Origin: Argopecten irradians
Taxonomy: Eukaryota; Mollusca; Bivalvia; Pectinida; Pectinidae
NCBI RefSeq assembly: GCF_041381155.1
Contig: NC_091144.1
Coordinates: 17,059,544-17,123,543 of the forward strand
Length of the DNA stretch: 64,000 nucleotides
Direction: 5' to 3'
In this document: in pieces, positions 5,302 to 49,127 of the stretch
Numbering within the stretch: position 1 is the stretch's first letter
Layout of the letters: each line of letters starts with the position of its first letter
Position numbers and translations under genes: made by a program
The notes under the pieces: generated by a model
Told to the model about the DNA's origin: nothing
Databases searched by the model: none
The model's input: only the letters and a program-made list of their open reading frames with translations

Positions 5302-5406
5302 TTTCCTCCCCTTCTTTTCGTAGCTCTCGGACGCTACTTTTGATCTAAAGAAGAAACCCGAAAGTTTCCGTTGGTGTTGAACAAGGGAGGTTACTCTAAA
5401 GTCACA
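5302..5406. promoter_or_regulatory. Bidirectional promoter region, WDR91 / NIT2
   Basis: Only 105 bases separate the minus-strand WDR91 start codon from the plus-strand NIT2 start codon, so both 5' UTRs and core promoters must overlap here or reach into the other gene. No clear TATA box is seen. This is inferred from arrangement only. Confidence 0.6.
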
Positions 5407-7142
5407 ATGGCTACTTTCCGTTTAGCACTGGTGCAGTTAGCTGTCTCTGCAACTAAAGCAGACAACCTTGTCAAAGTTGCTAAACTAGTGAAGGAGGCAG
5501 CATCTAAAGGAGCCCAAGTTATTGCGCTACCAGAATGTTTCAATTCTCCTTATGGCACTTCATATTTCCCAGAATACGCCGAAAAAATTCCAGGCGATTC
5601 AACTCAAGTTTTGGCAAAGGCTGCAAAAGATAATGGAGTATTTTTGATAGGTGGATCCATACCGGAGAAAGACGGCGACAAGTTATTCAACACATGCACC
5701 GTGTACAACCCAGAGGGCACAATGATAGCCAAGCATAGGAAGATGCATTTGTTTGATATTGACATTCCTGGTAAAATTAGATTTCAGGAATCTGAAACGC
5801 TGAGCCCTGGCAGTGGGTTCACTACATTTGATACTCCATACTGCAAAATAGGAGTTGGAATATGTTATGATATCAGATTTGCTGAAATGGCCCAAATCTA
5901 CAGTAAACGAGGATGCAAACTTATTGTGTATCCAGGTACGGCTACCCTATGAAAATGATGTTAAAATGTACACTATACTAATGGGAATAATTCGCATACC
6001 ACATGTAATCCAATAATATTAGACGTTGGTATTAAGAAACTTTTGATGGGCACGACGTAATGATCAGATGTGTCTCGTCATACTATAGATCAAAGTTGTA
6101 ACAATATTGGAGTAATACCACGTGACACCCGATAACGTCGTTAGACTTAGTGTGGGACTATTGATGCTATTGGTGATGGAATGACGTCAAAAAGTGATAT
6201 CATGCGTTAAATTCATTTCAGGGGGAAGATTACAAATACTTACATTCCATCACCAATAGAGATACTAGTCCCACTAGTATCACGGGATACGTGAATTAGT
6301 CCCATTATACACACGATACATTATTGTAGACCTGTACAATTGTAATGATGTGTGTAGTGATAAGTGTGTACCATGTAAATTTAGGGGAAGAGTACCTTAG
6401 ACCCTCAGAAATTTGGAAAGACCTTGGCCCAAACGCCTTATTTCTATTGATTTTTGCTTTAAAACTCTAGTAATTTGTTAATGAAGGATCAGTCTCAAGG
6501 AAGAATTCCAATAGGAACTAATTAAGGCAAATATATATCAAGATGTATCATGCATATAAGTTTTCCTAATCGAGTATTCATGATCACCTTACCATGATTA
6601 CCGAAAACGGAATTTGTCAAAGTCACCAAAAGTCACATCATACTTTAAGAGAGGAAAAAGATAAATTTGAACTTTGAACCCTTCAAACTCAAGATATATA
6701 ACTCTAATTGATGAAGCAGATGATTCTAACTAGTTCCTCAGTCCTATATGATGAATAAGCCTCTCTTTATATTGTGATCATTATTCATTTGCAAAATAAA
6801 TGTTGAAAAAAATTTGATTTCAAATTTTCAGGGGCCTTCAATATGACCACCGGACCTGCCCACTGGGAATTGCTACAAAGGGGGCGTGCCCTGGACAACC
6901 AACTGTATGTTGCCACAGTATCACCTGCCAGAGACGAAAGTGCTACATACCATGCATGGGGTCACAGTTCATTGGTGAATCCTTGGGGGTCAGTCACTTC
7001 AACCATGGAGCATGAGGAAGGGGTCATATATGGTGACATTGATCCAAACTATGTGGATGAAGTGCGAGCACAAATTCCGATTGGATTTCAAAAGAGACAT
7101 GATATGTATAAGGTTGAAGAAGAAGAGAAAAAGGAAAATTAA
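5407..7142 (+). CDS. NIT2: Omega-amidase NIT2 (nitrilase superfamily), complete
   Basis: Two exons, 5407-5935 and 6832-7142, join across a GT-AG intron as Y-P-G-A-F-N to give 279 residues, close to the roughly 276 of mammalian NIT2. The nitrilase triad is at the positions known for the family: Glu43 in [11 protein letters not shown], Lys112 in KHRKMHLFD, Cys153 in GICYDIRF. The enzyme hydrolyses alpha-ketoglutaramate and alpha-ketosuccinamate to the keto acids plus ammonia, closing the glutamine transaminase pathway in cytosol and mitochondria. The start [10 protein letters not shown] was preferred to an in-frame ATG at 5371 because family proteins begin here and the catalytic numbering then matches. 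No breaks are seen. It shares its promoter interval with WDR91. Confidence 0.95.
6118..6306. repeat. Imperfect fold-back (MITE-like) in NIT2 intron
   Basis: GGGACTATTGATGCTATTGG at 6153 is mirrored by the strand-reversed CCAATAGAGATACTAGTCCC near 6270; the arms continue outward to CACGTG/CACG motifs. Arms are about 60 bp with mismatches. No coding content. Confidence 0.5.
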
Positions 7143-14445: not shown

Positions 14446-16941
14446 GCCTGTAGGTTGCTGGGATGAAGGGCTACCAAGTTTGTTCAAATAAATGACCTTG
14501 ACCTTCATTCAAGGTCACAGGGGTCAAAAAGGCTAAAATCTTTAAACAACTTCTTCTCAAGAACCAGAAGGCCCAGGGTACTGATATTTGCCCTGTAGGA
14601 TGCTGGGATGAAGGGCTACCAAGTTTGTTCAAATAAATGACCTTGACCTTCATTCAAGGTCACAGGGGTCAAATAGGCTAAAATCCTTTAAACAACTTCT
14701 TGTGAATAATTAAGAGGCCTAGAGACCTGATATTAGGCCTGTGGCATGCTGGGATGAAGGGCTACCAAGTTTGTTCAAATAAATGACCTTGACCTTCATT
14801 CAAGGTCACGAGGGTCAAAAAGGCTAAAATCTTTTAAACAACTTCTTCTCAAGAACCAGAAGGCCCAGGGTACTGATATTTGGCCTGTAGGATGCTGGGA
14901 TGAAGGGCTGCCAAGTTTGTTCAAATAAATGACCTTGACCTTCATTCAAGGTCACAGGGGTCAAAAAGGCTAAAATCTTTAAACAACTTCTTCTCAAGAA
15001 CCAGAAGGCCCAGGGTACTGATATTTGGCCTGTAGGATGCTGGGATGAAGGGCTACCAAGTTTGTTCAAATAAATGACCTTGACCTTCATTCAAGGTCAC
15101 AGGGGTCAAATAGGCTAAAATCCTTTAAACAACTTCTTGTGAATAACTAAGAGGCCTAGAGACCTGATATTAGGCCTGTGGCATGCTGGGATGAAGGGCT
15201 ACCAAGTTTGTTCAAATAAATGACCTTGACCTTCATTCAAGGTCACGAGGGTCAAAAAGGCTAAAATCTTTAAACAACTTCTTCTCAAGAACCAGAAGGC
15301 CAGGGTACTGATATTTGGCCTGTAGGATGCTGGGATGAAGGGCTACCAAGTTTGTTCAAATAAATGACCTTGACCTTCATTCAAGGTCACAGGGGTCAAA
15401 ATAGGCTAAAATCCTTTAAACAACTTCTTGTGAATAACTAAGAGGCCTAGAGTACCTGATATTAGGCCTGTGGCATGCTGGGATGAAGGGCTACCAAGTT
15501 TGTTCAAATAAATGACCTTGACCTTCATTCAAGGTCACGAGGGTCAAAAAGGCTAAAATCTTTAAACAACTTCTTCTTAAGAACCAGAAGGCCCAGGGTA
15601 CTGATATTTGGCCTGTAGGATGCTGGGATGAAGAGCTACCAAGTTTGTTCAAATAAATGACCTTGACCTTCATTCAAGGTCACAGGGGTCAAATAGGCTA
15701 AAATCCTTTAAACAACTTCTTGTGAATAACTAAGAGGCCTAGAGACCTGATATTAGGCCTGTGGCATGCTGGGATGAAGGGCTACCAAGTTTGTTCAAAT
15801 AAATGACCTTGACCTTCATTCAAGGTCACGAGGGTCAAAAAGGCTAAAATCTTTAAACGACTTCTTCTCAAGAACCAGAAGGCCCAGGCTACTGATATTG
15901 GGCCTGTGACATGCTTGGATGAAGGGCTACCAAGTTTGTTCAAATGAATGACCTTAACCTTCATTCAAGGTCACGGGTGTCAAAAAGGCTAAAATATTTA
16001 AATGACTTCTTCTCAAGAACCAGAAGGCCCAGGGTACTGATATTTGGCCTGTAGGATGCTGGGATGAAGGGCTACCAAGTTTGTTCAAATAAATGACCTT
16101 GACCTTCATTCAAGGTCACAGGGGTCAAATAGGCTAAAATCTTTAAATGACTTCTTCTCAAGAACTAGAAGGCCAAGGGTACTGATATTGGGCATGTAGC
16201 ATGCTTGGATGAAGGGCTATCAAGTTTATTCAAATGAATGACCTTGATCTTCATTTAAGGTCACAGGGGTCAAATAGGCTAAAATCATTTAAACAAATTC
16301 TTGTGAATAACGAAGAGGCCTAGAGACCTGATATTAGGCCTGTGGCATGCTGGGATAAAGGGCTACCAAGTTTGTTCAAATGAATGACCTTGATCTTCAT
16401 TCAAGGTCACAGGGGTCAAATAGGCTAAAATCTTTAAATGACTTCTTCTTAAGAACCAGAAGGCCCAGGGTACTGATATTGGGCATGTAGCATGCTGGGA
16501 TGAAGGGCTACCAAGTTTGTTCAAATAAATGACCTTGACCTTCATTCAAGGTCACAGGGGTCAAATAGGCTAAAATCTTTAAATGACTTCTTCTCAAGAA
16601 CCAGAAGGCCAAGGGTACTGATATTGGGCATGTAGCATGCTTGGATGAAGGGCTATCAAGTTTATTCAAATGAATGACCTTGATCTTCATTTAAGGTCAC
16701 GGGCGGCAAATAGACTAAAATCTTTAAATGACGTCTTCTCAAGAACCAGAAGGCCCAGGGTACTGATATTGAGCATGTGGCATGCTGGTAGCATGCTGGG
16801 ATGAAGGGCTACCAAGTTTGTTCAAATGAATTACCTTGACCTTCAATCAAGGTCACAGAGGTCAAATAGGCTAAAATCTTTAAACGACTATGTTGTATTG
16901 TACTAATAGTCAGATGACCGTTAAGGCCCATGGGCCTCTTG
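14446..16941 (+). repeat. Tandem array, about 145 bp unit x 17
   Basis: The landmark GGGATGAAGGGCTACCAAG recurs 17 times at spacings of 144-147 bases between about 14460 and 16800 (one wider step of about 156 near the end). Two unit types alternate over much of the left half: one with CTTCTCAAGAACCAGAAGGC, the other with CTTGTGAATAACTAAGAGGC. The right end is a unique tail, GACCGTTAAGGCCCATGGGC then CTCTTGT. The arrangement resembles bivalve 'pearl'/Helitron-like elements with tandem cores. The short open frames here are periodic by-products, not genes. Confidence 0.9.
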
Positions 16942-17079: not shown

Positions 17080-20000
17080 CTTGTCCTGATATAAAACTTT
17101 GTCATATCTTAAACTAAACTGCTTTATATTTGTTAAAAAGGTCTTGGCAACAAACTTGCTTTCTAATTGCCTTTTGTCCGTCGTCATCGTCGTCCGTCGT
17201 GCGTCATGCGTCGTCTGTCGTATGTCCGTAAACAATTTACATTTTCGACTTCTTCTCCAAAACTGCTGAAGCAATTTCAATGAAATTTTGCACAAACCTT
17301 CTAAGGTATAAGGCCAATCAAATTTGTGAATTATATGGTCCCCACCCCCCAGGGAGCTATGGGAGGGGCCAAAAGGGGTAAAATTGACTAAAATTTCAAA
17401 AATCTTCTTCTCCACTCACAGATGTAATGGAATTAAATACTCTTCATAGATAGAAAGGTCCTAAGGTCCTTTACAAAAATTGTGAATTATCTGACCCTTG
17501 GGTCTCAGGTTTCCCCCTGGGGAGGGGGTTAAGTTTACTATAGTTTATATAGGGAAAACACATTTTTGAGTATTATTTGATCATTTGTAATAGGAAATGA
17601 GTCAAATATTGTCAGAATTATCAGTATGAGATGGCCATTGAATCCTTTTAACCAATTTTCCATGACTGACCCCCAGGGGCCTTAGGGGCGGGGTCAAAAG
17701 GGGTCAAATAGGCTTCAACAAGAGGCCCAAGGGCCTTAACGGTCATCTGACTATCTTGGCAATAGCTGTATAGGAAAATAATTAGATATGGTGTCATGGT
17801 AGCCATCTTCAATCTGGGATCAACAAGAGATATAACAATACTTTGACAAGATTATATCAGCCACATTTCATGTTTCAAGTTTCAGTTAAATTGCACTGGT
17901 AGAACTTGAGAAGAAGTTCAAAATGTGTTTTCAAGATGGCATCTGTAGCAGCCATCTTGTATCATCTGTGGCAGCCATCTTGGATTTTGGATCGACATAA
18001 AATATAACAACACTTGGTCGGGACCATGTCAGGATCATTTCATGCAGGTTTCAGCTTAATCACACTGGTAGAACTTGAGAAGAAGTTCAAAATTCTGGAT
18101 TCTGGTTCAAGATTTTGGAATATTTGACTCTCATGACCTTGAAAGTAGGTCAAGGTCATTCATTTCCACAACTTTGATAGCCCTTTATCTCAGCATGCTA
18201 CTGACTAAATATGAATACCCTGGACCTTTCAGCTAATTAAAAGGTGTAGTTGAAAGGTTTAAGCTTAATTGACCCCTGTGACCTAGAAAGAAGGTCAAGG
18301 TAATTCATTTTTATAACTATGGTAAACCTTCATCCCAGCGTGCCACCAGCAAAATATGAGTATCCTGGACTTTTGGGTTAGTTAACAAAAATTGTTCAAA
18401 GAATTTAGCCTATTTGACCCCTGTGACCATGAAAGAACGTCAAGGTCATTAATTTTCACACCTTTGGTAGCCCTTCATCCCAGCATGCTACAGGCCAAAT
18501 ATGAGTACCCTGGACCTTTTGGTTAGTTAGAAGAAGTCGTTCAAAAATTTTAGCCTATTTGACCCCTGTGACCATGAAAGAACGTAAAGGTCATTAATTT
18601 TCACACCTTTGGTAGCCCTTCATCCCAGCATGCTGCAGGCCAAATATGAGTACCCTGGACCTTTGGTTAGTTAGAAGAAGTTGTTCAAAGATTTTAGCCT
18701 ATTTGACCCCTGTGACCTTCAAAGTAAGTTAAGGTCATTAATTTTTACAACTTTAGTAGCCCTTCATCCCAGCATGCTACAGGCCAAATATGAGTACCCT
18801 GGACCTTTTGGTTAGTTAGAAGAAGTCGTTCAAAGATTTTAGCCTATTTGACCCCCGGTGACCTTGACAGTAGGTCAAGGTAATTAAATTTCACAACTTT
18901 TGTAGCCCTTCATCCCAGCATGCTACAGGCCAAATATGAGTACCCTGGACCTTTTGTTTAGTTAGAAGAAGTCGTTCAAAGATTTTAGCCTATTTGACCC
19001 CTGTGACCTTGAAAGTAGGTCAAGGTCATTTATTTTCACAACTTTGATAGCCCTTCATCCCAGTATGCTACAGGCCAAATATGAGTACTTAGGGCCTTAT
19101 GGTTATTGAGAAGAAGTTGTTTGAATGAAAAGTTTATGCACGGCGCAAGGCGGGCGACGGACGGTGCATGATGACTATAGGTCATCCTGACCCTTTGGGT
19201 CAGATGACCTAAAAATCTTCTTCTGAAATACTGGAAATGGTAGAATCATGTACTCTTCATAGATGGAAAGGTCTTGAGGTCCTTTACAAAAATTGTGAAT
19301 TATATGACCCTGGGGTGTCAAGTTTCCCCCTGGGGAGGGGGTCAAGTTTACTATAGTTTATATAGGAAAACACATTTATGAGCATTTTTTGCTCAATTTT
19401 CATAGGAAATGAGTCAAACTTGTTTAGAATTATTAGCCTGAGATAACATTTTAATATCATATCTATATTGGTCCTGGTCAACCCCCTCTGGGCAGAGGGG
19501 CGGGGCCAAAAGGGGCAAATAAGCTAAAACTTTAAAAATCTTCTTCTTAAATACTGGAAATGGTAGAATCAAATACTCTTCATAGATGGACAGGTCTTAA
19601 GGTTTTTTATGAAAGTTGTGAATTATATGACCCTGGGGTGTCACGTTTCCCCCTGGGGAGGGGGTCAAGTTCACTGTAGTTTATATAGGGAAAACACATT
19701 TTTGAGCATTATGTGATGGCCATTGAATCTTATTACCAAATTTTCCATGACTGATCCCCAGGGGCCTTAGGGGCGGGGCCAAAACAGGTCAAATAGGCTA
19801 AAACTTCAAAAATCTTCTGAAATTCTGGAACTGGTAGAATCAAATACTCTGCATAGATGGAAAGGTCTTAAAGTCCTTTACAAAAATTGTGAATAATATG
19901 GCCCTGGGGTCTCATGTTTCCCTCTGGGGAGGGGGTCAAGTTTATATAGGAAAACACATTTATGAACATTATTTGCCTATTTTTCATAGGAAATTAGTGA

Positions 20001-22062: not shown

Positions 22063-22095
22063 AAATGTATGATGACTACATGTCAAGGGTCAGAT

Positions 22096-22198
22096 TAGTC
22101 CGCTAAACCTGCCTATATTATTAGGTGTTTTTTTCTTAATGTGTATTAGACAAATCTTTTTTCAAAGCCTAATAATATAGACAGGTTTAGCAGACTAA
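22096..22198. mobile_element. Palindromic MITE, family 3, copy 1
   Basis: Inverted ends TAGTCCGCTAAACCTGCCTA and TAGACAGGTTTAGCAGACTA with TATTATTAGG inside give about 30 bp arms on a 103 bp element. GGTCAGAT flanks both sides, an 8 bp target duplication of hAT type. A second copy is at 39916-40047. Confidence 0.8.
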
Positions 22199-22253
22199 GG
22201 TCAGATGATCTAAAAACCAGGTGAGCGATACAGGCCTTCTGGGCCTCTTGTTG

Positions 22254-32612: not shown

Positions 32613-32726
32613 CTGTGAAATCAATACACGGGTAAGTTTGATAGAATTATTTTGGAATCTCAGTAGATTGTTTTGGACCCTTGGGTAGGAATTGCAATTT
32701 TAACATGTATTGAATATGATATATTA

Positions 32727-32751
32727 GGGGAGAGTGGGGGTAGTTGAGCCA
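32727..32751 (+). repeat. Left terminal inverted repeat of the pogo-type element
   Basis: 25 bases starting GGGGAGAGTGGGG, paired with 40264-40288 with one mismatch; TA precedes it. Confidence 0.9.
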
Positions 32752-33097
32752 CAGGGTTAGTTGAACAAGTGGCGGGAAATAGTTTTACGTCATGTTTATG
32801 ACGTCATAATCGATTTTTCTGAAGCCGCTGTTATTTGAAGTGGACGTCAGCAAAAGAGGTAAGTCGATATTCCCATAACATTTTTTTTTAATACAAGAAA
32901 ATTATTTTTCACACTCCAAAGTATTTTTTCGGGAATTATGTATTTTCCTATTACCGCTTTATTTCTTATTGTGATTTATATGAATTATGTGTACCGTCGA
33001 AATTTGTAGTTTCACGCGTATCATTTCGTATCAAAACTATTTGTCAGACCATTACCTAAATCGCATTACAGACCATTAAAAATTTATACTATTCGCG

Positions 33098-33182
33098 GGG
33101 CTAGTTGAGCCACCTACGATGGGGCAAGTTGAACCACTGGGTCAACGTGCCCTTAGACTGGTTCAACTAGCCCCAACTAAGT
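33098..33182. promoter_or_regulatory. Subterminal motif cluster, probable transposase binding sites
   Basis: GGGGCTAGTTGAGCCACC, GGGGCAAGTTGAACCACTGG and the inverted GGTTCAACTAGCCCC lie within 85 bases and repeat the core of the terminal repeat (TAGTTGAGCC). A mirrored cluster, CTCAACTTACCCC and GGGGTAAGTTGAGCC, is at 40050-40110. Repeated cores near both ends are typical of transposase binding sites; binding is inferred. Confidence 0.65.
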
Positions 33183-33261
33183 GCCCGCACCGCCTTTCAT
33201 AGTTACATAATGTTTAAAGAATGTTTCAGCAAATTTCAGTTTGTATTTTCAAAATTGTCCA

Positions 33262-33545
33262 GTGTAGATGTTCATAATGACATGTATAAAAATATCAAAG
33301 AAACACAATTTAACAAAGCATGACAATTTATTTAAGGAATGATTTTCATTTTTTGTTGTTTACTGGTGTGTTAAACTGCATTTTTGTACACGATATTTTA
33401 AATGGCGCAGTGGTAGAAGGCGCAGGTATGTTTGGATAGGCGATTGGGTGCCGTAGATCGTGAGTTCGAGGCCCAGATAGGGCACGAGTCAATAAATTGT
33501 CATGCTTTTTTAAATTATGTTTCTTTGATATTTAATGACATGTAT
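33262..33545. repeat. Hairpin enclosing a tRNA-like sequence
   Basis: ATGACATGTATAAAAATATC and AAGCATGACAATTTATT at 33268-33332 face AATAAATTGTCATGCTT and GATATTTAATGACATGTAT at 33492-33545. In the loop, TGGCGCAGTGGTAGAAGG (box A-like) and GTGAGTTCGAGGCCC (box B-like) lie at tRNA spacing. It may be a SINE inserted in, or captured by, a fold-back. Confidence 0.45.
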
Positions 33546-33845
33546 ATATATATAATATCATCAGTACCTTATACATGTAACGTTAAGAACATGTGTTGTG
33601 AACTCGTGTAAATATGTCCTCACCCACGATCAGCTGATTTGATCTTCTTTTGATTACCGCTCGCCGTTACATGGACGATTATGATTGGTAAGATCGTATA
33701 AGAGATATCATCGATTAAGGTTGAATTGACACAAAAAATATTTAAGTGAAGTGAGAAATTCATGAAAAGTATAGTAAAATGACCAAAGTTGACTCACATT
33801 ATGTATCATGCTGTATTCCCAAGGTCTGCCTTACAAACTTTCCCT

Positions 33846-35806
33846 GTCCTAAATCATGTACGAGCTGTATGTACCCTGTCCTTATATCATGTACGAGCTG
33901 TATGTACCCTGTCCTTATATCATGTACGAGCTGTATGTACCCTGTCCTTATATCATGTACGAGCTGTATGTAACCTGTCCTTATATCATGTACGAGCTGT
34001 ATGTACCCTGTCCTTATATCATGTACGAGCTGTATGATACCCTGTCCTTATATCATGTACGAGCTGTATGTACCCTGTCCTATATCATGTACGAGCTGTA
34101 TGTACCCCTGTCCTTATATCATGTACGAGCTGTATGTACCTCTGTCCTTATATTCATGTACGAGCTGTATGTACCCTGTCCTATATCATGTACGATCGAG
34201 TTGTATGTACCCTGTCCTATATCATGTACGAGCTGTATGTACCCTGTCCTTATATCATGTACGAGCTGTATGTACCCTGTCCTATATCATGTACGAGCTG
34301 TATGTACCCTGTCCTATATCATGTACGATCGAGTTGTATGTACCCTGTCCTATATCATGTACGAGCTGTATATACCCTGTCCTTATATCATACGAGCTGT
34401 ATTTACCCTGTCCTTATATCATGTACGAGCTGTATGTACCCTGTCCTTATATCATGTACGAGCTGTATGTACCCTGTCCTATATCATGTACGGAGCTGTA
34501 TGTACCCTGTCCTTATATCATGTACGAGCTGTATGTACCCTGTCCTTATATCATGTACGAGCTGTATGTACCCTGTCCTATATCATGTACGATCGAGTTG
34601 TATGTACGAGCTGTTAGTACCCTGTCCTATATCATGTACAGTATGTAGCTGTATGTATGTACCCTGTCCTTATATCATGTACGAGCTGTATGTACCCTGT
34701 CCTATATCATGTACGATCGAGTTGTATGTACCCTGTCCTATATCATGTACGAGCTGTATGTACACTGTCCTATATCATGTACGAGCTGTATGTACACTTT
34801 CCTATATCACGTACGAGCTGTATGTACACTGTTCTATATCACGTACGAGCTGTATGTACCCTGTCCTATATCATGTACGAGCTGTATGTACACTTTCCTA
34901 TATCACGTACAATGTACGAGCTGTATGTACACTGTCCTATATCACGTACGAGCTGTATGTACCCTGTCCTATATCATGTACGAGCTGTATGTACCCTGTC
35001 CTATATCATGTACGAGCTGTATGTACACTGTCCTATATCACGTACGAGCTGTATGTACCCTGTCCTATATCATGTACGAGCTGTATGTACCCTGTCCTAT
35101 ATCATGTACGATCGAGTTGTATGAACCCTGTCCTATATCATGTACGAGTTGTATGTATCCTGTCCTATATCATGTACGAGCTGTATGTACCCTGTCCTAT
35201 ATCTCGTACGAGCTGTATGTACCCTATCATATATCATGTACGAGCTATATGTACCCTATCCTATATCTCGTACGAGCTGTATGTATCCTGTCCAATATCC
35301 CGGGCTGTATATATCCTGTCCAATATCCCGAGCTGTATGTACCCTGTCCAATATCACGAGCTGTATGTATCCTGTCCAATATCACGAGCTGTATGTACCC
35401 TGTCCAATATCCCGAGCTGTATGTACCCTGTCCACTATCCCGAGCTGTATGTACCCTGTCCAATATCACGAGCTGTATGTACCCTGTCCAATATCACGAG
35501 CTGTATGTATCCTGTCCAATATCACGAGCTGTATGTACCCTGTCCAATATCACGAGCTGTATGTACCCTGTCCAATATCACGAGCTGTATGTATCCTGTC
35601 CAATATCCCGAGCTGTATGTACCCTGTCCAATATCCCGAGCTGTATGTACCCTGTCCAATATCACGAGCTGTATGTACCCTGTCCAATATCACGAGCTGT
35701 ATGTATCCTGTCCAATATCCCGAGCTGTATGTATCCTGTCCAATATCCCGAGCTGTATGTACCCTGTCCAATATCCCGAGCTGTATGTACCCTGTCCAAT
35801 ATCGCC
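33846..35806 (+). repeat. Minisatellite, 33 to 28 bp units, about 65 copies
   Basis: The core CGAGCTGTATGTACCCTGTC C repeats without a break. Unit length changes in blocks: 33 bp with TTATATCATGTA at the left, 32 bp with TATATCATGTA or TATATCACGTA in the middle, 28 bp with AATATCA or AATATCC from about 35290. The long open frames running through it (up to several hundred codons) are products of the periodicity and not genes. It ends 116 bases before the transposase start codon. Confidence 0.95.
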
Positions 35807-35922
35807 CAATTCATGCCATTTGCGTATCAATAATCCTATTTTACTATGCTAAATTTATTTTTACGCTTTTTATCTATGCTAAATTTATTTTTACGCTTTT
35901 TATCTGTTGTCAACAGATCAAT

Positions 35923-38259
35923 ATGACACGGACATATCACAGAAAAACCAACAGAGCCGACCGCACATCAACAACTGCATTGAAATGGGCAAGAGATCGT
36001 GTTCTGTTTAGCAATCTAAGTGTGAGAGCAGCAGCAGCGGAGTTCAACATTGACCGATCAACGTTGAAGCGTTTCATATTGAAGAAGAGCAGTAATCCTG
36101 ATGCCTCTATGGGATACCGGGGTCATCGACAAGTGCTTAGTGCCCAACAGGAGGACATTTTAGAGGACTATCTCCTGACGGCATCGAAGATATACTTCGG
36201 TATGTCTCCCAAGAGCACACGGGAACTAGCGTATCAATGTGCTATATCGTTTGGCATCAGCATTCCAGAATCTTGGGAAAGAGACAAGTGTGCTGGAACA
36301 GATTGGTTCCAAGGGTTTTTGAAGAGACACGGGAGCCTCTCCCTGAGAACACCTGAAGCAACTAGTCTAAGCCGAGCGACAAGTTTTAATAAACATAACA
36401 TCTCTACCTTCTTCTCCAACCTTGGACAGGTTTACGAGAGATATGGATTTGCGGCAAAAGATGTGTGGAATGTCGACGAAACTGGAATCACAACTGTACA
36501 GAAACCAAGAAGAATCGTGGCCGGTAAGGGAGTGAAGCAAGTAGGTGCCATAACATCGGCCGAAAGAGGTACACTAGTGACCGTATGCGGTGCAATCAAT
36601 GGTGCTGGTAACTCCATGCCACCTATGTTAATATTTCCAAGAAAAACCTTCAAACCCCATTATATCAGGGACGGGCCAAATGGGTGCACTGGCTCATCGC
36701 ACAAGTCTGGGTGGATGACATCTGAAAATTTCCTTAAATTCATACAACATTTTGTCGAGCATACAAAATCATCGGTAGAGAAACCTGTCCTTCTACTCCT
36801 TGACAATCACCATTCCCACATAAGCATTGACATTTTGACATTCGCAAAGACCCATGGTGTAGTAATGCTTTCCATTCCACCTCATTGCTCTCACAAACTT
36901 CAACCTCTTGATGTATCAGTCTATGGACCACTGAAACGACTTGTAGCAAGCGCTCAGGATGCATGGCTAAAGACTCATCCCGGAACTCCAATGACTATCT
37001 ACGACATTCCAGGAATCCTCCGTGAGGTGTGGCCTCTTGCTTTGACTCCAAAGAATGTCATCAGTGGCTTCCAAACGACTGGGATATTTCCTTTGAATAT
37101 AAATGTATTTAACGAGGACGACTTCGCACCCTCATACGTAACTGACAGATCAGCGCCATCATCAGAAACTGCAGCTGAGATATGTCAAGATAAATCTCCA
37201 GTTAATACAAGTCAACCTGTCGTCGGTATCCTCACAGACCCCGTACTTGTGTCTTCATGTCGCGCTGATGTGGATCCACCTGTTAACGACGCGATGGTCC
37301 CCAAAACGGGTGAAAGTGCTAGCACGGCACTCATAGATGTAAATACCTTCCTTCAAGTAAGAGGGAAATCTCAACTGCAAGTTTCAGGGGATGGGCATTG
37401 TTTGCTACATGCATTTGAACTGGCAATCCAGTCAGAACTAAACATACATGTCAACTCTTTCCAGCTATGTGGAGGACTTATTAAGGAGATTTCGGAAAAT
37501 GTGAACTTTTATAGTAACTTCATCATGAACAACAGCAACATTTTAGAAGAAATATACAGTTATATACAACGAAAGGCATACAACACGCAAACAGGAGACC
37601 TCGTACTGTCTGCTTTGTGTAACGCATTTAATGTTTCGGTAGTGGTGTACATAGTACGTCACGGTGGAATCGATGAAATTCACCAGGATCCCCGACCATC
37701 ACAGGACGGGGCGTCATTGGGAACTATCTTTCTGATTTTATCGGGAGAGGGGGGGGGGGGGGGGGGTAATGCACACTACAGCGTGGCTTCCCCTGCAACG
37801 AATGGCATTCAACCTAATGCAAATCTTCCTAATGTCGGTCCTCAAAATTTTGATCCGCAAGCAGTCCGTCCTTTCCCGAAAGCGACACCAAGAAAAGGTG
37901 TACACAAAGGCCGTAAAAAGAGGAGGAGTGCCATACTGACGGATACCCCAGAGCTGAAAATTATCGAGGAGGAATCGCTTAAAAAGAAACAGAAAGAAAA
38001 ACAGCAACCTGCACCAAGACGTAAAAGACAAAGAAACGAAGGAGGAAAGCAAAAGAGACGAAAGAAAACGAAGGCCATTGCCGTGATTGAAGAGGATAGT
38101 AGTGACGATGATTATTACTTCTGTTTAGTTTGTCTAGAGTCTTATGCTAACAGTAAGCCGAACGAGTCTTGGATTCAGTGCATCAATTGCAAGTTGTGGT
38201 CCCACGAGGAATGTACCGATGGGTCATCAGTATACATTTGCCAGAAACTGCGAATCTGA
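35923..38259 (+). CDS. Pogo/Tigger-type transposase fused to OTU-like protease and PHD-like finger
   Basis: One 778-residue exon from MTRTYHRKTN; the upstream open frame is minisatellite, so this ATG is chosen. Residues 16-56 form a psq-type helix-turn-helix (SVRAAAAEFNIDRSTLKRFI). About 115-145 is CENP-B-like (WFQGFLKRHG). The DDE_1 catalytic core has Asp185 (VWNVDETGI), Asp294 (LLLDNHHSH) and Asp330 (HKLQPLD), 35 residues apart for the last two. Residues about 484-625 look like an OTU cysteine protease: GDGHCLLHAF with Asp490 and Cys493, and NAHYSV with His618. A basic nuclear-signal-like stretch (655-720) leads to a PHD-like finger: C734xxC737, C753xxC756, H761, C764, C773; the expected last cysteine is replaced near the C-terminus. 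The transposase would cut and paste the element; the roles of OTU (ubiquitin cleavage) and PHD (chromatin binding) are inferred. No breaks. Confidence 0.9.
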   Translation: MTRTYHRKTNRADRTSTTALKWARDRVLFSNLSVRAAAAEFNIDRSTLKRFILKKSSNPDASMGYRGHRQVLSAQQEDILEDYLLTASKIYFGMSPKSTRELAYQCAISFGISIPESWERDKCAGTDWFQGFLKRHGSLSLRTPEATSLSRATSFNKHNISTFFSNLGQVYERYGFAAKDVWNVDETGITTVQKPRRIVAGKGVKQVGAITSAERGTLVTVCGAINGAGNSMPPMLIFPRKTFKPHYIRDGPNGCTGSSHKSGWMTSENFLKFIQHFVEHTKSSVEKPVLLLLDNHHSHISIDILTFAKTHGVVMLSIPPHCSHKLQPLDVSVYGPLKRLVASAQDAWLKTHPGTPMTIYDIPGILREVWPLALTPKNVISGFQTTGIFPLNINVFNEDDFAPSYVTDRSAPSSETAAEICQDKSPVNTSQPVVGILTDPVLVSSCRADVDPPVNDAMVPKTGESASTALIDVNTFLQVRGKSQLQVSGDGHCLLHAFELAIQSELNIHVNSFQLCGGLIKEISENVNFYSNFIMNNSNILEEIYSYIQRKAYNTQTGDLVLSALCNAFNVSVVVYIVRHGGIDEIHQDPRPSQDGASLGTIFLILSGEGGGGGGNAHYSVASPATNGIQPNANLPNVGPQNFDPQAVRPFPKATPRKGVHKGRKKRRSAILTDTPELKIIEEESLKKKQKEKQQPAPRRKRQRNEGGKQKRRKKTKAIAVIEEDSSDDDYYFCLVCLESYANSKPNESWIQCINCKLWSHEECTDGSSVYICQKLRI

Positions 38260-39915
38260 TGATGATTTATTTTGAGATGCGTGGTAATTTAAAGATAAAT
38301 TGAAACCTCTGAACTTGTCATACAAATGTACTAGTGTCTACTACTTTCACCTGTGCCGCTGCTATCCAATTACATATTACAAAATGTATTTGAATTATTT
38401 CGTTTTTCTTTTCTATTTAGTCTTATACAAATATATTCTGTATATTGATATTTTGCAAAGTATATAATGCAAGAATTGATTCTCTGATAATTTCACGAAT
38501 AATATACAGATATATGTGAACGTGTACGCTACGCTTTTACATACAATGACACTCTAGACACATGTATAAAATACATGATCAAGCAATTTGCCTCTGGCAA
38601 GTTAAGTTATTCAAGTTAACGTAGACCGTCCCTTCTGTGACGTCATACGTTTGTTATGTCGCTATCCGAATCCCGGCAAACGTATTTTATATTTCCGTAC
38701 CCATCTATTACAACTCGCTTCTGAAATCAGCATTCGAGCAAGTATTTCGTCTAGAACCTTTTCGAGTGTTTACTTGAAGTGTATCAATCTAAAGGTGTGT
38801 CAATCGGTAAAAACTAACAAGGGTAGATGAATAACATAAAACGTTGAAAAGTGCTACGGATTCGCCTATTTTTTAACATTTTCAGACCAAAATTTAAGGG
38901 GTATTAGGAAGCAAATCGGTCATAATTTGAAAAGTAATGCGGTGAGGTATACTTTTTATTGGCTTTTCTTATTACAAATAAGCCAATCTTCATGGAAATT
39001 CTGAAAAATCGATTTTTCTTGAGATCATTTTTTCAGAAAAAAGAAAACATTACTATTTTGATGCAATTTTTCACTAAAATTGGGCCCGGACTTAATTTTA
39101 AAATAACGATATTTCGTTTTATTGTGAAAACCCATCTTATTGGATATAGTAATGAATTCTATATCACCTACTGAAGGTATGAACATGTTACAGGTATATT
39201 TATTTATATGTTAAGGGATACTACAGGGAGGAAATATTATTTATTTAAAAATCCTTAAAATCCGGATTATAAGTCATTTGTACATATCTTTAAGCAACCC
39301 TGGAAGAAAAATTAACCCGGTGACATATGATTTTTATGCGGTTTTTGTGATCAGGGTATACCTAAAATCAAAATATCAAAAAATTAACGAAATCCATGAG
39401 AGGAAACCAGAAAGGACGGTCTACCTTAAGAATAAGTAATATGTAGTCTACGCTTATCAATGATTTGTTGCATTTTGGATTCGTGACTAAATCGGCCTAT
39501 GTCAAAACAGCACATGTTTGTAAACTGTACCTGTATTGTATTTGAACAATCGTACCACTCATTTGTAATACTTTGTAATTCAACCACTTTTGTAAACATT
39601 TTTCTTTGTTATATCATGACAAAGAAGAAAAAAAAAAAAAAAAAAAAAAAACAATGTTCAGACCATTTAAAAAAAACACACACATCCTTACACAAGGTAC
39701 ATGTATATGAAGTAAACTTAAGCTGGCAAAAAAATACTGGTTAATAATAAGCTAACGATTTATGAATACTATACATGTGCATCAATATATACATATTCAG
39801 ATATCATTAGAATACTTTTATTAATTTATTAGTAACGTCAACAATATTTGTATAGGTTCACGGCAAAGATTTATAAGTACTCGTCCTTGGTACGCGGAAA
39901 GTGTGTGACTCAACT
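38260..39915. other. 3' non-coding region of the pogo-type element
   Basis: AT-rich sequence after the transposase stop, with an A-run at 39629-39650. No second gene is visible. AATAAT and similar weak poly(A) signals occur, none clear. Confidence 0.5.
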
Positions 39916-40047
39916 TAGTCCGCTAAACCTGCCTATATTATTAGGCTTTTTTTAATTTTTTTTTGCCTAATATATAGTCTATATATTAGGCAAAAAAAAA
40001 AAAAAAAAAAAAAAAAACCTAATAATATAGGCAGGTTTAGCGGACTA
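39916..40047. mobile_element. Palindromic MITE, family 3, copy 2
   Basis: The same ends as 22096-22198 (TAGTCCGCTAAACCTGCCTA and its inverse) bound a longer A/T-run centre. CTCAACT stands on both sides, a 7-8 bp target duplication. It lies inside the right subterminal region of the pogo-type element, so it jumped in later. Confidence 0.8.
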
Positions 40048-40263
40048 GGCTCAACTTACCCCGGTTGGTTGTTCAAGTAGCCCCGGACACGGGGTAAGTT
40101 GAGCCATTTAACTGAGAACTTGTAATGATTATTATTGTAATATGGAGGCCAAAGAAAATACTTTTAACATACAAAATTAAAGAGACATATGTGCACTTTA
40201 CGATAGAATTAAATAAATATATTTCCCTAGCCAATTTTTCGAAGAGCTTTAATATGCATAAAA

Positions 40264-40288
40264 TGGCTCAACTATCCCCACTCTCCCC
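40264..40288 (-). repeat. Right terminal inverted repeat of the pogo-type element
   Basis: 25 bases, TGGCTCAACTATCCCCACTC TCCCC, the inverse of the left end; TA follows it. Confidence 0.9.
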
Positions 40289-40376
40289 TATATCGTTTTT
40301 ATATAAATAATTAATTCAGTTATCAAATGCAGAATATTCATGCATGTCTGGAGTAAACAAACAACAGAAAACGAAC

Positions 40377-46700: not shown

Positions 46701-49127
46701 TAAAAAGGCGCATTAGCTTAAGAGTTTTTCCTAAACTTTTGAAATGCTTTTCTATGGAACATTTTAAGTAAAATAATTTCTTAAAAGTTAAGGAATGTTC
46801 ATGAAACTGGGCCCAGAACCTTCAAAACCACACCTTCACGAAAACGTGGAGCGAATGAGACTTACAATAAACTTTGATAGGATCCGTCTGTTTATAGAAC
46901 ATGTTGTTGGACGGGTCGCTGATCGTGTCCTGTTGTAGTGTACACCTGATGATGACCCCGTCATCGTCCTTGGTCATTGCAATGTTGATGGTACTACTTC
47001 CGGTGTAGGTACAGTCTGTACTCGGGGAGGTTTGGGTGGTAGAAGATACAGTACTACCCACATAATCTGATACCCCGCTGTACTTAGTCCACAGGAAAGT
47101 TCCGGCCGGCAGACCCACGTTACTGGTACAGGTGAACTGGACTGTCTGTCCCTCCACAATATTGGTGGCTGGGAATACTTCCACTTCCCCAAACGTTGTA
47201 ACGTTTGGCATAGCTTTTATATGAAAATCAATTAAATGTTAAGTTTTCTATATTTTTTTTACAGTAGTTGTAATTACACTACTTCAATAAACTGGATTGA
47301 CTCTCCATAACTTCAACTAACAAACATTGTTATAGTTGAAGTTGCTCTATCATATTTTTTTCAATCAAAAACAAATACAGAAGCTATTTGTTGAGATTAA
47401 GATAGACATTTTGAAAGTACTAATTTTATATGCATTCACTTTGTTTACCTTAATTGCATAAATCAAATAAAATGACCAACATGTTGCTGGGTATTGTATA
47501 TCCAAATAACCCATATTTGCTGATTATTATAGAGACAAAGGTTATTCCTTCCTTAATTACTTATAGACTACTTCCATAATTTTAAAGCTTGATTATGTTA
47601 TATAAACGTATTTATTATTGCGCAAGCAGAGTTAAGCGCGAAATAAATTTGGAGCAGTTTGCACAAACACAATAATTGGCGGATGACGTAAACTCAGAAA
47701 CTTCAAAAATATGAATACAGTTAAAATATCATTGTCTTCAGTAGCTCGAATACATTTATAATGTTTTAATATAAGGTCGACATTAGAATTTAATTATCTT
47801 TACAATGTCAGTAAACTTCAACAAAATACAGTTGTCTCTTCACACAATTATCTTTAATTATGACAAATATGATTACAACACTACCTGTGATTGTAAGACT
47901 TGTCTCACTAGATGGATTTGCCTGTATGTTGTTACTCAGACCAAGAACACTACATTGGTATTTACGTTCGTCCCCACACACGACACGTGTAAACTTTAGT
48001 TTAGCTGTGAGAGAGGATTCTGTGGGATTGGTCAGAGTTATACGTCCAAACACATCCGGGTTGGTCAGGTTCGTTAATGATGCTGGGCTCTGAGTTGGTC
48101 CTGGTGGATAAAATAATGCCAATTGTTCAAAGGTCCCGGAATCTTTAGATGTCTCCCTGTCCCAAGATATCGTAAACACAGTATCAGTTGATGATAGGGT
48201 GTACGTACAAGCAAGTTCCAATTCATTGTTACCTACCAGTCCAACAGGGTTAACTTTGGTTGTGGCGGAAATATCACATTGAACCCCTGCAATAAATTGA
48301 AAAAAGAAACAGGTGATATCAAATTAAAACCATTTTTATATAGTGGACCACAAAGGACATGCCGTTCATTTTAAATAACGCATTAAATCACGTGTGACGC
48401 CATATCAATGTTATACATGTGCGCCCGTTGTCAGTATAATGTGACCGCCTGATGGTATATGTTGCTTGGGGTCTTCAGCGGCATGTGTGAGTGATATAGA
48501 ACCATAAAAAGGCAACAGTTCCGCTATACAAGAAGACACAGCATGAACATACCACAGTCTCCAAAAAAACCGCATTTCGCACTTCACACACGCTATACAC
48601 CGCATATATGGGAGGCCGTCCTTACATGACCCTGGCTGTTAATTGGACGTTGATTAATCAATCAAAAAAAAAAAACCAACATAAGGATTGTATGACAAAG
48701 CGGATTAATTTCAATAAAATCCTTAGCAATGATAGGTAATAATATATAAAATTAATATATTTTACATCGATTATGAAACATGTTATGAAGCTTACACAAA
48801 TCACTTTCGACGACCCGGATATAAGTGTGCGAGAGGTCTTAGAGTGATCGGAAACCGTAGTACCCGAGAGAACCCCACGTGAACATGCAGGTTAACCCCC
48901 GACAGGTAAGTTGTTTACACATGTATATACACGTATTCACCATTCATTATGACATCTATATGTATGCAACGGAGACATTGACATTATTCAAGGTGCTATA
49001 ATAAAATACAATCAGAATCAAATGAAAACTCTCAAAACTTGGTGTAAAAAGAATTATATCGAACATAATCATGCTTACCCGCATACAGAAGTAACAGCAC
49101 GACGACCACAATCCGTACCGCCGCCAT
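40741..49127 (-). CDS. Ig-superfamily membrane receptor with ITAM-like tail, ten exons, complete
   Basis: Minus-strand exons: 49127-49079, 48286-47885, 47213-46866, 46051-45788, 43924-43826, 43375-43283, 42102-42075, 41825-41739, 41502-41435, 40805-40741. All are GT-AG, the phases agree, and the total is 1503 bases: 500 residues plus stop. It starts with a signal peptide (MAAVRIVVVVLLLLYAG). Three Ig-like domains follow: about 20-150 (ACTYTL..ISWDRE..YQCSV), 151-266 (FTCTSN..FLWTK..IRCTL) and 267-354, an I-set type (LTCAAEGNPAPTYIWKLNG..SGDYSCEAKN). Then come a Thr-rich stalk (355-388), a membrane helix (393-418) and an 82-residue cytoplasmic tail with YQQL 431, YQTL 445, YHVL 459, YQEL 471 and YVN 485. 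I cannot name an orthologue. By its layout it is an adhesion or immune-type receptor signalling through tyrosine phosphorylation; the ligand is unknown. Confidence 0.85.
40894..41065. mobile_element. Half of a family 2 MITE in receptor intron 9
   Basis: TTTAAAGATGCTACACCGCT and GTTACTTACTTTACACCATC match the right half of the element at 12186-12553 reversed. The other end is missing. The duplicate carries it too (53737-53912). Confidence 0.65.
41185..41370. repeat. Short A-rich tandem repeats, about 20 bp
   Basis: Imperfect copies of a unit like AAACGAAATTCACAAAGTAA. The matching array in the duplicate (53985-54260) is longer. Confidence 0.6.
44030..44105 (+). repeat. Dispersed repeat fragment in receptor intron 4
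   Basis: GGTATCTTGCGTGCGTGCAT and TTTTGGGAGACTGTGGTATG match the family at 51362-51600. Confidence 0.45.
46631..46814. mobile_element. MITE with GGGCCCAGTTTCAC ends in receptor intron 3
   Basis: The left end GGGCCCAGTTTCACAAACAT and the right end ATGTTCATGAAACTGGGCCC form about 25 bp inverted repeats on a 184 bp element; the arms continue with TTAAGGAATG-type matches. AGAAC borders both sides, a possible short target duplication. No coding. Confidence 0.75.
48400..48660 (-). repeat. Dispersed repeat, receptor intron 1
   Basis: Reverse orientation copy of the 51362-51600 family: GCCCGTTGTCAGTATAATGT at one end and TCCTTACATGACCCTGGCTG at the other. Confidence 0.6.

What the first reader, a model, noticed from the sequence alone, without database searches (positions are those of the whole stretch)
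35923..38259. Pogo-type transposase fused to an OTU-like protease and a PHD-like finger
A single intact 778-codon frame holds an HTH/CENP-B-like N-terminus, a DDD catalytic core (Asp185, Asp294, Asp330), then GDGHCLLHAF and NAHYSV, which are the Asp-Cys and His parts of an OTU deubiquitinase, and finally a C4HC-type zinc finger. Pogo/Tigger and PHD-tailed transposases are known; I do not know of one carrying a complete OTU triad. A transposon that brings its own deubiquitinase could protect its transposase from turnover or act on ubiquitinated histones at targets.
Basis: partly seen in the sequence, partly recalled or inferred. Interest (0 to 1): 0.9.

Follow-up and report, generated by a model that had tools for sequence, protein, structure and literature searches.

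The report
Jumping gene with built-in deubiquitinase-like domain
This is a complete-looking cut-and-paste transposon of the pogo kind whose transposase also carries a domain resembling a ubiquitin-removing enzyme and a zinc finger; such ubiquitin-cutting tails are known on unrelated transposons, but in the papers searched we saw none on a pogo element.

Summary
Window 35923-38259 is one open frame of 778 codons with a pogo-type catalytic domain (DDE_1, E 5e-17; Asp185/294/330, DD35D), then an OTU-like domain (Asp490, Cys493, His618) and a PHD-like finger. The OTU match is weak: 22.3 bits in the whole protein (cut-off 23.3), 26.2 bits as a fragment; a second profile (otubain, below its cut-off) reaches the His box only when a Gly-rich loop is left out. 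I also found the element's ends: a 25-bp inverted repeat (24 of 25 identical) flanked by TA, so a 7,562-bp pogo-type transposon, most like Passer. A 16-bp motif, probably the transposase-binding site, recurs at both ends. Caveats: Ser stands two after the His; the finger's eighth zinc ligand is missing in frame; both structure predictions failed; no animal genomes were searchable, so whether the OTU belongs to the family or only to this copy is open. OTU tails are known on Ginger1 transposases and Helitrons, so this is a new variant of a known kind. The role of the OTU in transposition is inference.

The parts
32727..40288 (+). Whole pogo-type DNA transposon, 7,562 bp, including nested repeats and a minisatellite
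   Evidence: TIR pair and flanking TA
32725..32726 (.). TA target-site duplication, 5' side
   Evidence: a 2-bp duplication is weak on its own
40289..40290 (.). TA target-site duplication, 3' side
32727..32751 (+). 5' terminal inverted repeat, 25 bp
   Evidence: 24 of 25 identical to the reverse complement of 40264-40288; blastn pair E 1.4e-5
40264..40288 (-). 3' terminal inverted repeat, 25 bp
32753..33174 (.). 5' subterminal copies of the 16-bp motif GGGGYWAGTTGARCMA at 32753(+), 33097(+), 33121(+), 33138(-, 3 mismatches), 33159(-); probable transposase-binding sites
   Evidence: function inferred
39906..40106 (.). 3' subterminal copies of the same motif at 39906(-, 3 mismatches), 40047(-), 40069(-), 40091(+)
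   Evidence: function inferred
33842..35803 (+). Minisatellite, about 62 units, mostly of 28 to 36 bp, between the 5' end and the gene
35923..38259 (+). Transposase-OTU-PHD gene, 778 codons plus stop, one uninterrupted frame
36010..36333 (+). N-terminal HTH / CENP-B-like DNA-binding region (residues 30-137)
   Evidence: HTH_28 0.0033 (residues 30-52), HTH_Tnp_Tc5 0.0065 (residues 75-137), fragment scan, both below cut-off
36475..36912 (+). DD35D catalytic core, Asp185 to Asp330
   Evidence: DDE_1 5e-17 over residues 218-343; positions
37387..37785 (+). OTU-like cysteine protease domain, residues 489-621 (Asp490, Cys493, His618)
38077..38112 (+). IAVIEEDSSDDD, resembles a SUMO-interacting motif (residues 719-730)
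   Evidence: sequence; the motif is recalled, no call tested it
38122..38256 (+). PHD-like zinc finger, residues 734-778, seven of eight ligands in frame
   Evidence: PHD 4.3e-4 on a fragment, below cut-off; PDB sequence match to the Bye1 PHD region 6.8e-4; missing ligand

Best explanation
It is an autonomous-looking cut-and-paste transposon of the pogo superfamily (Passer-like by DD35D, TA target and short TIR) whose transposase has gained an OTU-type deubiquitinase-like domain between the catalytic core and a C-terminal PHD-like finger. Proposed working: the N-terminal HTH region binds the repeated 16-bp motif in the TIRs and subterminal clusters; the DD35D core cuts at the TIRs and inserts at TA; the OTU domain, held in the same polypeptide, removes ubiquitin from the transposase itself or from proteins at the transposition site (repair factors or histones), keeping the complex stable or steering repair; the PHD-like finger and the strongly basic tail hold it on chromatin. 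Shown here: frame, DDE_1 match, OTU profile matches, ends, TA flanks, repeated motif. Inferred: DNA binding by these sites, that the OTU is an active deubiquitinase, and every role of the OTU and finger.
For: Catalytic domain and residues. OTU profile: whole protein 22.3 bits, 165-residue fragment 26.2, 138-residue fragment 26.9, cut-off 23.3. With the Gly-rich loop left out of the query, a second profile, Peptidase_C65 (otubain), matches positions 147-240 of 243, through the His box, E 1.5e-4, 21.8 bits (cut-off 24.3); with the Cys box also replaced by alanines that match remains at 7e-4, 19.6 bits. Controls 0 of 5. Open frame against 0 of 2000 shuffles. TIR 24 of 25, TA flanks. Motif: 8 matches at <=3 mismatches in the window against 0.35 expected (0 of 100 shuffles reach 8), 8 of 8 inside the element. 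Published pogo features met: TA target, TIR <=40 bp, DD35D as in Passer (PMC7386202 section 8; PMC9976928 passages). OTU on other transposons.
Against: The whole-protein OTU score is one bit under the Pfam cut-off. Both otubain matches are below that family's cut-off; with the loop kept, otubain reaches only position 201 and not the His box (E 0.0043); with the Cys box replaced by alanines the OTU profile itself no longer matches at E<=10; the last 73 residues alone match no OTU family. No OTU chain was found in the PDB by sequence: searches list 37 and 41 rows, nearly all OXA-48-type beta-lactamases at E 0.086 and worse, taken as chance. AlphaFold without an alignment failed: pLDDT 34.4 whole, 39.4 OTU fragment; Foldseek had 88 matches at E<=10, none at E<=0.001, and no OTU among the 50 rows shown. 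Ser620 at His+2 may weaken catalysis. The missing zinc ligand and nested insertions suggest that this copy may be starting to decay. One copy only: no test of selection on the OTU. The 7,562-bp length exceeds the 1.2-5.2 kb published for pogo, which the nested repeats and minisatellite may explain.
Confidence: 0.6

Rival explanations
1. Chance capture in this copy: the OTU segment was picked up once by this element or its recent parent and is passenger sequence with no role in transposition.
For: Only one copy could be seen; no relative in the collections searched, which are viral, prokaryotic, phage and plasmid collections. The minisatellite and nested repeats show that the element accumulates foreign sequence.
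Against: The OTU lies in frame between the catalytic core and the finger with the Asp, Cys and His boxes kept in order; 0 of 2000 shuffles are stop-free. A recent capture from a host gene should also resemble known OTUs more closely than 22-27 bits (inference).
Confidence: 0.2
2. The OTU domain is present in the family but is catalytically dead and serves as a ubiquitin-binding or structural module.
For: Ser620 at His+2 and a Gly-rich insertion just before the His box; the profile score is weak.
Against: Asp490, Cys493 and His618 are all kept; some active OTUs of the A20/Cezanne type have no Asp/Asn at His+2 (recalled, no call).
Confidence: 0.25
3. A domesticated host gene derived from a pogo-OTU element, no longer mobile.
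For: A long intact frame in a locus with nested insertions.
Against: TIRs 24 of 25 identical, TA flanks and repeated terminal motif are all still in place, which a domesticated gene does not need.
Confidence: 0.07
4. Not an OTU at all: a tail with chance motif matches.
For: PDB sequence searches and both structure predictions gave no OTU; the whole-protein OTU score is just below cut-off.
Against: Two related OTU profiles match, the otubain one even with the Cys box replaced by alanines, though below its cut-off and with the Gly-rich loop left out; 0 of 5 shuffle or reverse controls match.
Confidence: 0.1

Closest known systems
Passer family of pogo transposons (DD35D)
   Same: DD35D core with DDE_1, weak HTH_Tnp_Tc5 at the N-terminus, TA target site, short TIR (here 25 bp; most Passer <30 bp, PMC9976928 passages)
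   Different: The words OTU and PHD occur 0 times in the main text of PMC7386202 and of PMC9976928; longer element; family placement not tested by a tree
Fot/Fot-like pogo elements, with six oyster (Crassostrea gigas) sequences in the Fot1 subfamily (PMC7325037 section 10)
   Same: DD35D; molluscan members exist; a weak HTH_psq hit here (0.031) is of the type listed for Fot
   Different: Most Fot elements have TAA targets; no OTU mentioned in the passages read; relation not tested by a tree
Ginger1 DNA transposons (PMC2836005, passages)
   Same: Single transposase with a C-terminal OTU domain (pfam02338), including one family from Aplysia; a PHD occurs in one family, there with Ulp1
   Different: Gypsy-integrase-type catalytic domain with H2C2 finger and GPY/F, GC-rich 4-bp targets; no family in its Table 1 has OTU together with PHD; independent gain is implied
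OTU- and VTD-bearing Helitrons/Helentrons (passages of PMC9741609 and PMC6431247)
   Same: Mobile elements that encode an OTU-like cysteine protease within their transposition protein
   Different: Rolling-circle Rep-helicase protein, no DDE transposase
POGK and POGZ, Passer-derived host genes (PMC7386202 passages)
   Same: Passer-type transposase fused to additional domains (KRAB, zinc fingers)
   Different: Domesticated host genes; the added domains are near the N-terminus and not a protease

Membership tests
pogo superfamily | DDE_1 catalytic domain with DDxD triad | tested here: met
   62.5 bits, cut-off 22; Asp185/294/330
pogo superfamily | N-terminal HTH / CENP-B-like (HTH_Tnp_Tc5) DNA-binding domain | tested here: inconclusive
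   Fragment E 0.0065, 16.9 bits, below cut-off 22.2
pogo superfamily | TA target duplication and TIRs | tested here: met
   TA on both sides, 25-bp TIR with 24 of 25 identical
pogo superfamily | Published length 1.2-5.2 kb, transposase 300-977 aa | tested here: not met
   Protein 778 aa fits; element 7,562 bp does not. It falls to about 4.4 kb by arithmetic if three nested repeats and the minisatellite are discounted. A published range, not a defining feature
Passer family | DD35D, TIR mostly <30 bp, TA target | tested here: met
Passer family | Position in the transposase tree | not testable with these tools
   No pogo sequences were found to build a tree; Fot-like, also DD35D, is not excluded
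OTU cysteine protease family | Profile match above Pfam cut-off | tested here: inconclusive
   22.3 bits whole protein (cut-off 23.3, not met); 26.2 and 26.9 as fragments (met)
OTU cysteine protease family | Asp-x-x-Cys box and His box in order | tested here: met
   Asp490, Cys493, His618
OTU cysteine protease family | Asp/Asn two after the catalytic His (recalled) | tested here: not met
   Ser620; not universal among active OTUs (recalled)
OTU cysteine protease family | Papain-like OTU fold | tested here: inconclusive
   pLDDT 39.4; Foldseek nothing at E<=0.001
OTU cysteine protease family | Deubiquitinase activity | not testable with these tools
   needs an assay
PHD finger | C4HC3, eight ligands | tested here: not met
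   Seven in frame; the eighth position is Leu777; Pfam 20.7 bits, cut-off 24
Ginger1 | Gypsy-type integrase core with H2C2 finger and GPY/F | tested here: not met
   The core matches DDE_1/DDE_3; no integrase family among the 9 listed at E<=1
Helitron | Rep/helicase protein | tested here: not met
   No Rep or helicase family among the 9 listed; TIRs present

The most novel reading that the evidence does not exclude
A whole lineage of animal pogo transposons carries an active OTU deubiquitinase between the DD35D core and a PHD finger, gained independently of Ginger1 and Helitrons. Three unrelated transposition machineries (DD35D transposase, integrase-type transposase, rolling-circle Rep-helicase) would then each have recruited a deubiquitinase, which would make control of ubiquitin at the transposition site a general need of animal DNA transposons.
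Probability: 0.4. Interest if true: 0.7.

Novelty: new variant of a known kind. Interest (0 to 1): 0.52.

Why it matters
If the OTU is conserved in the family and active, a single-gene cut-and-paste element offers a direct test of why transposons encode deubiquitinases: mutate one cysteine and measure excision, integration and transposase stability. PMC9741609 (2022; passages read) states that transposon OTU domains had not been tested for catalytic activity. It would also add a third, unrelated transposition machinery to those that recruited such a domain.

Tried and rejected
Relatives: none in viral contigs (by protein or fragment; 25 by TIR pattern), genome contigs (35, 72), phages or plasmids. 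These are viral, prokaryotic, phage and plasmid collections, so the misses say little about animals. No own genome is held. Fetching OTU sequences for an alignment: pattern scans of viral contigs gave 0 and 4 loci (L001-L004). My regular expression found the motif in 2 of the 4, in frames of 114 and 99 residues with no OTU-like continuation by eye; the other 2 were not examined further. I did not use bacterial OTUs as a yardstick, since many are injected effectors (recalled).

Structure: whole protein pLDDT 34.4, OTU fragment 39.4; the Foldseek run on the latter is meaningless at that confidence. The order of predicted helices and strands looks OTU-like by eye, but I give it no weight.

Considered and rejected: that the upstream minisatellite is part of the protein (the frame is open through part of it, but the N-terminus that looks like pogo by recall begins at 35923); that the PDB beta-lactamase rows mean anything (E 0.086 to 1.6; the alignments shown begin just after the Cys and end before the His; IL-7 receptor rows and one plant-protein row also appear); that the element is a Ginger1 or a Helitron (membership table). 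NCBIfam gave one sub-cut-off IS630 match (53.2 bits, cut-off 100), PHROGs only rows at E 0.096 or worse, PADLOC nothing for the OTU fragment. Rfam and tRNA scans of the window were empty.

Full report
What is there. The frame 35923-38259 is exactly as reported: 778 codons, ATG to TGA, uninterrupted. The catalytic part matches DDE_1 at 5e-17 and DDE_3 at 1.3e-7. The triad is Asp185, Asp294, Asp330, with 35 residues between the last two. The N-terminus matches helix-turn-helix families only weakly: HTH_28 0.0033 and HTH_Tnp_Tc5 0.0065 on a fragment, both below cut-off.

The OTU part. In the whole protein the OTU profile scores 22.3 bits, one below its cut-off of 23.3. On a 165-residue fragment it scores 26.2 and on a 138-residue fragment 26.9, both above. 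These matches stop before the His box. With the natural sequence the otubain profile, Peptidase_C65, reaches only position 201 of 243 (E 0.0043). When the Gly-rich loop (GEGGGGGG) before the box is left out of the query, otubain matches through the His box to position 240 (E 1.5e-4, 21.8 bits, cut-off 24.3); with the Cys box and its neighbours also replaced by alanines it still matches at 7e-4 (19.6 bits), while the OTU profile is then lost. The first 68 residues alone match OTU at 0.023; the last 73 residues alone match no OTU family (all). Of 5 controls (4 shuffles, 1 reversed) none matched any family at E<=1. I take the OTU as real with odds of about 0.85. Asp490, Cys493 and His618 are present. 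Ser620 is at His+2, where Asp or Asn is common (recalled), so activity is uncertain (about 0.5). Against: no OTU chain in the PDB by sequence, and two failed structure predictions.

The finger. Residues 734-774 supply C734, C737, C753, C756, H761, C764 and C774. The eighth ligand of a C4HC3 PHD is missing, Leu777 standing in its place. A neighbouring frame reads a cysteine and a short acidic tail there, so this copy, or its assembly, may carry a small frameshift at the very end of the gene. PHD scores 4.3e-4 on a fragment, 20.7 bits against a cut-off of 24. A PDB sequence search of the whole protein finds the Bye1 PHD region at 6.8e-4, with the basic stretch included in the match.

The element. 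Comparing the two flanks gave a 25-bp inverted repeat, 24 of 25 identical, at 32727-32751 and 40264-40288, with TA on both outer sides. The element is 7,562 bp. A 16-bp motif that ends the TIR recurs in subterminal clusters: searched at <=3 mismatches it has 8 matches in the window against 0.35 expected, with 0 of 100 shuffles reaching 8, and all 8 lie towards the element's two ends. With a looser consensus written after seeing these sites, 35 rows are listed at <=4 mismatches: 9 have <=1 mismatch and all 9 lie in the two ends; of the 6 rows with 3 mismatches, 2 lie in the ends and 4 elsewhere; the 20 with 4 mismatches lie elsewhere. The 5' cluster folds back as a hairpin (z -5.7 on single-stranded DNA). 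I infer that the motif is the transposase-binding site. Between the 5' end and the gene lies a minisatellite of about 62 units (33842-35803). Three nested repeats sit in non-coding parts: about 33274-33549, 38616-39429 (TTAA at both ends) and 39916-40047, the last with related arms at 22095-22199. Without them and the minisatellite the element would be about 4.4 kb.

What it belongs to. [quoted passage not shown] PMC9976928 (passages) gives Passer as DD35D, most with TIRs under 30 bp. PMC7325037 (section 10 and passages) places six oyster sequences in the Fot1 subfamily. The element meets the pogo features except the published length range, and the N-terminal domain test is inconclusive. Passer is my best guess among families; without a tree Fot-like is not excluded.

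What is known. Ginger1 transposases carry OTU or Ulp1 tails, one of the Ulp1 families also a PHD; the OTU list includes an Aplysia family (PMC2836005, passages). Animal and some fungal Helentrons carry OTU-like proteases (PMC6431247, one passage), and 121 Helitrons with a VTD deubiquitinase also carry OTU; that 2022 paper says transposon OTU domains had not been tested for activity (PMC9741609, passages). The CACTA paper PMC2613891 lists otubain-like genes on a soybean BAC (one passage). In nine searches of the paper library I saw no title, abstract start or passage that reports a pogo transposase with an OTU domain; papers not named here were seen as listings only, and two lists were cut (20 of 21, 12 of 369). 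The library misses most subscription papers, and Repbase reports were not searched, so prior description there is possible.

How it works. Binding at terminal motifs and insertion at TA follow from the pogo family. For the OTU, the Ginger paper suggests that such proteases may activate repair factors during transposition, and the VTD paper suggests protection of transposition proteins from the proteasome for Helitron VTDs (passages read). I favour a cis role, since the domain is covalently held at the transposition complex: removing ubiquitin from the transposase or from repair and chromatin proteins next to it.

Limits. No animal genome was searchable, so copy number, other copies, species and selection are unknown. 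Host: an animal is likely from a split carbon-nitrogen hydrolase gene at 5344-7142 and immunoglobulin-like exons at 46822-48323; a mollusc was not tested.

Noticed in passing
33842-35803: Minisatellite of about 62 units, mostly of 28 to 36 bp, inside the element just upstream of the gene, open over long stretches in several + frames.
   Followed up: partly
38616-39429: 814-bp nested repeat with 22-nt inverted ends (91% complementary) and TTAA at both ends; looks like a piggyBac-type non-autonomous element (type recalled).
   Followed up: partly
39916-40047 and 22095-22199: Fold-back element with related copies at two places in the window; one is inserted in the 3' subterminal region of the transposon.
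   Followed up: partly
33274-33549: Inverted-repeat insertion whose middle (about 33405-33480) resembles a tRNA-like promoter of a SINE by eye; ARAGORN found no tRNA.
   Followed up: partly
38077-38112: IAVIEEDSSDDD before the finger resembles a SUMO-interacting motif (recalled).
   Followed up: no
14446-16889 and 18105-19121: Two arrays of a satellite of 145-bp period, apparently in opposite orientation by eye.
   Followed up: no
5344-7142: Split carbon-nitrogen hydrolase gene (Pfam CN_hydrolase in two frames), probably NIT2-like (name recalled).
   Followed up: partly
46822-48323, minus strand: Frames with immunoglobulin V-set and C2-set domains.
   Followed up: no
4312-4830, minus strand: Frame that looks like the tail of a LINE reverse transcriptase by eye (recalled motif).
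   Followed up: no
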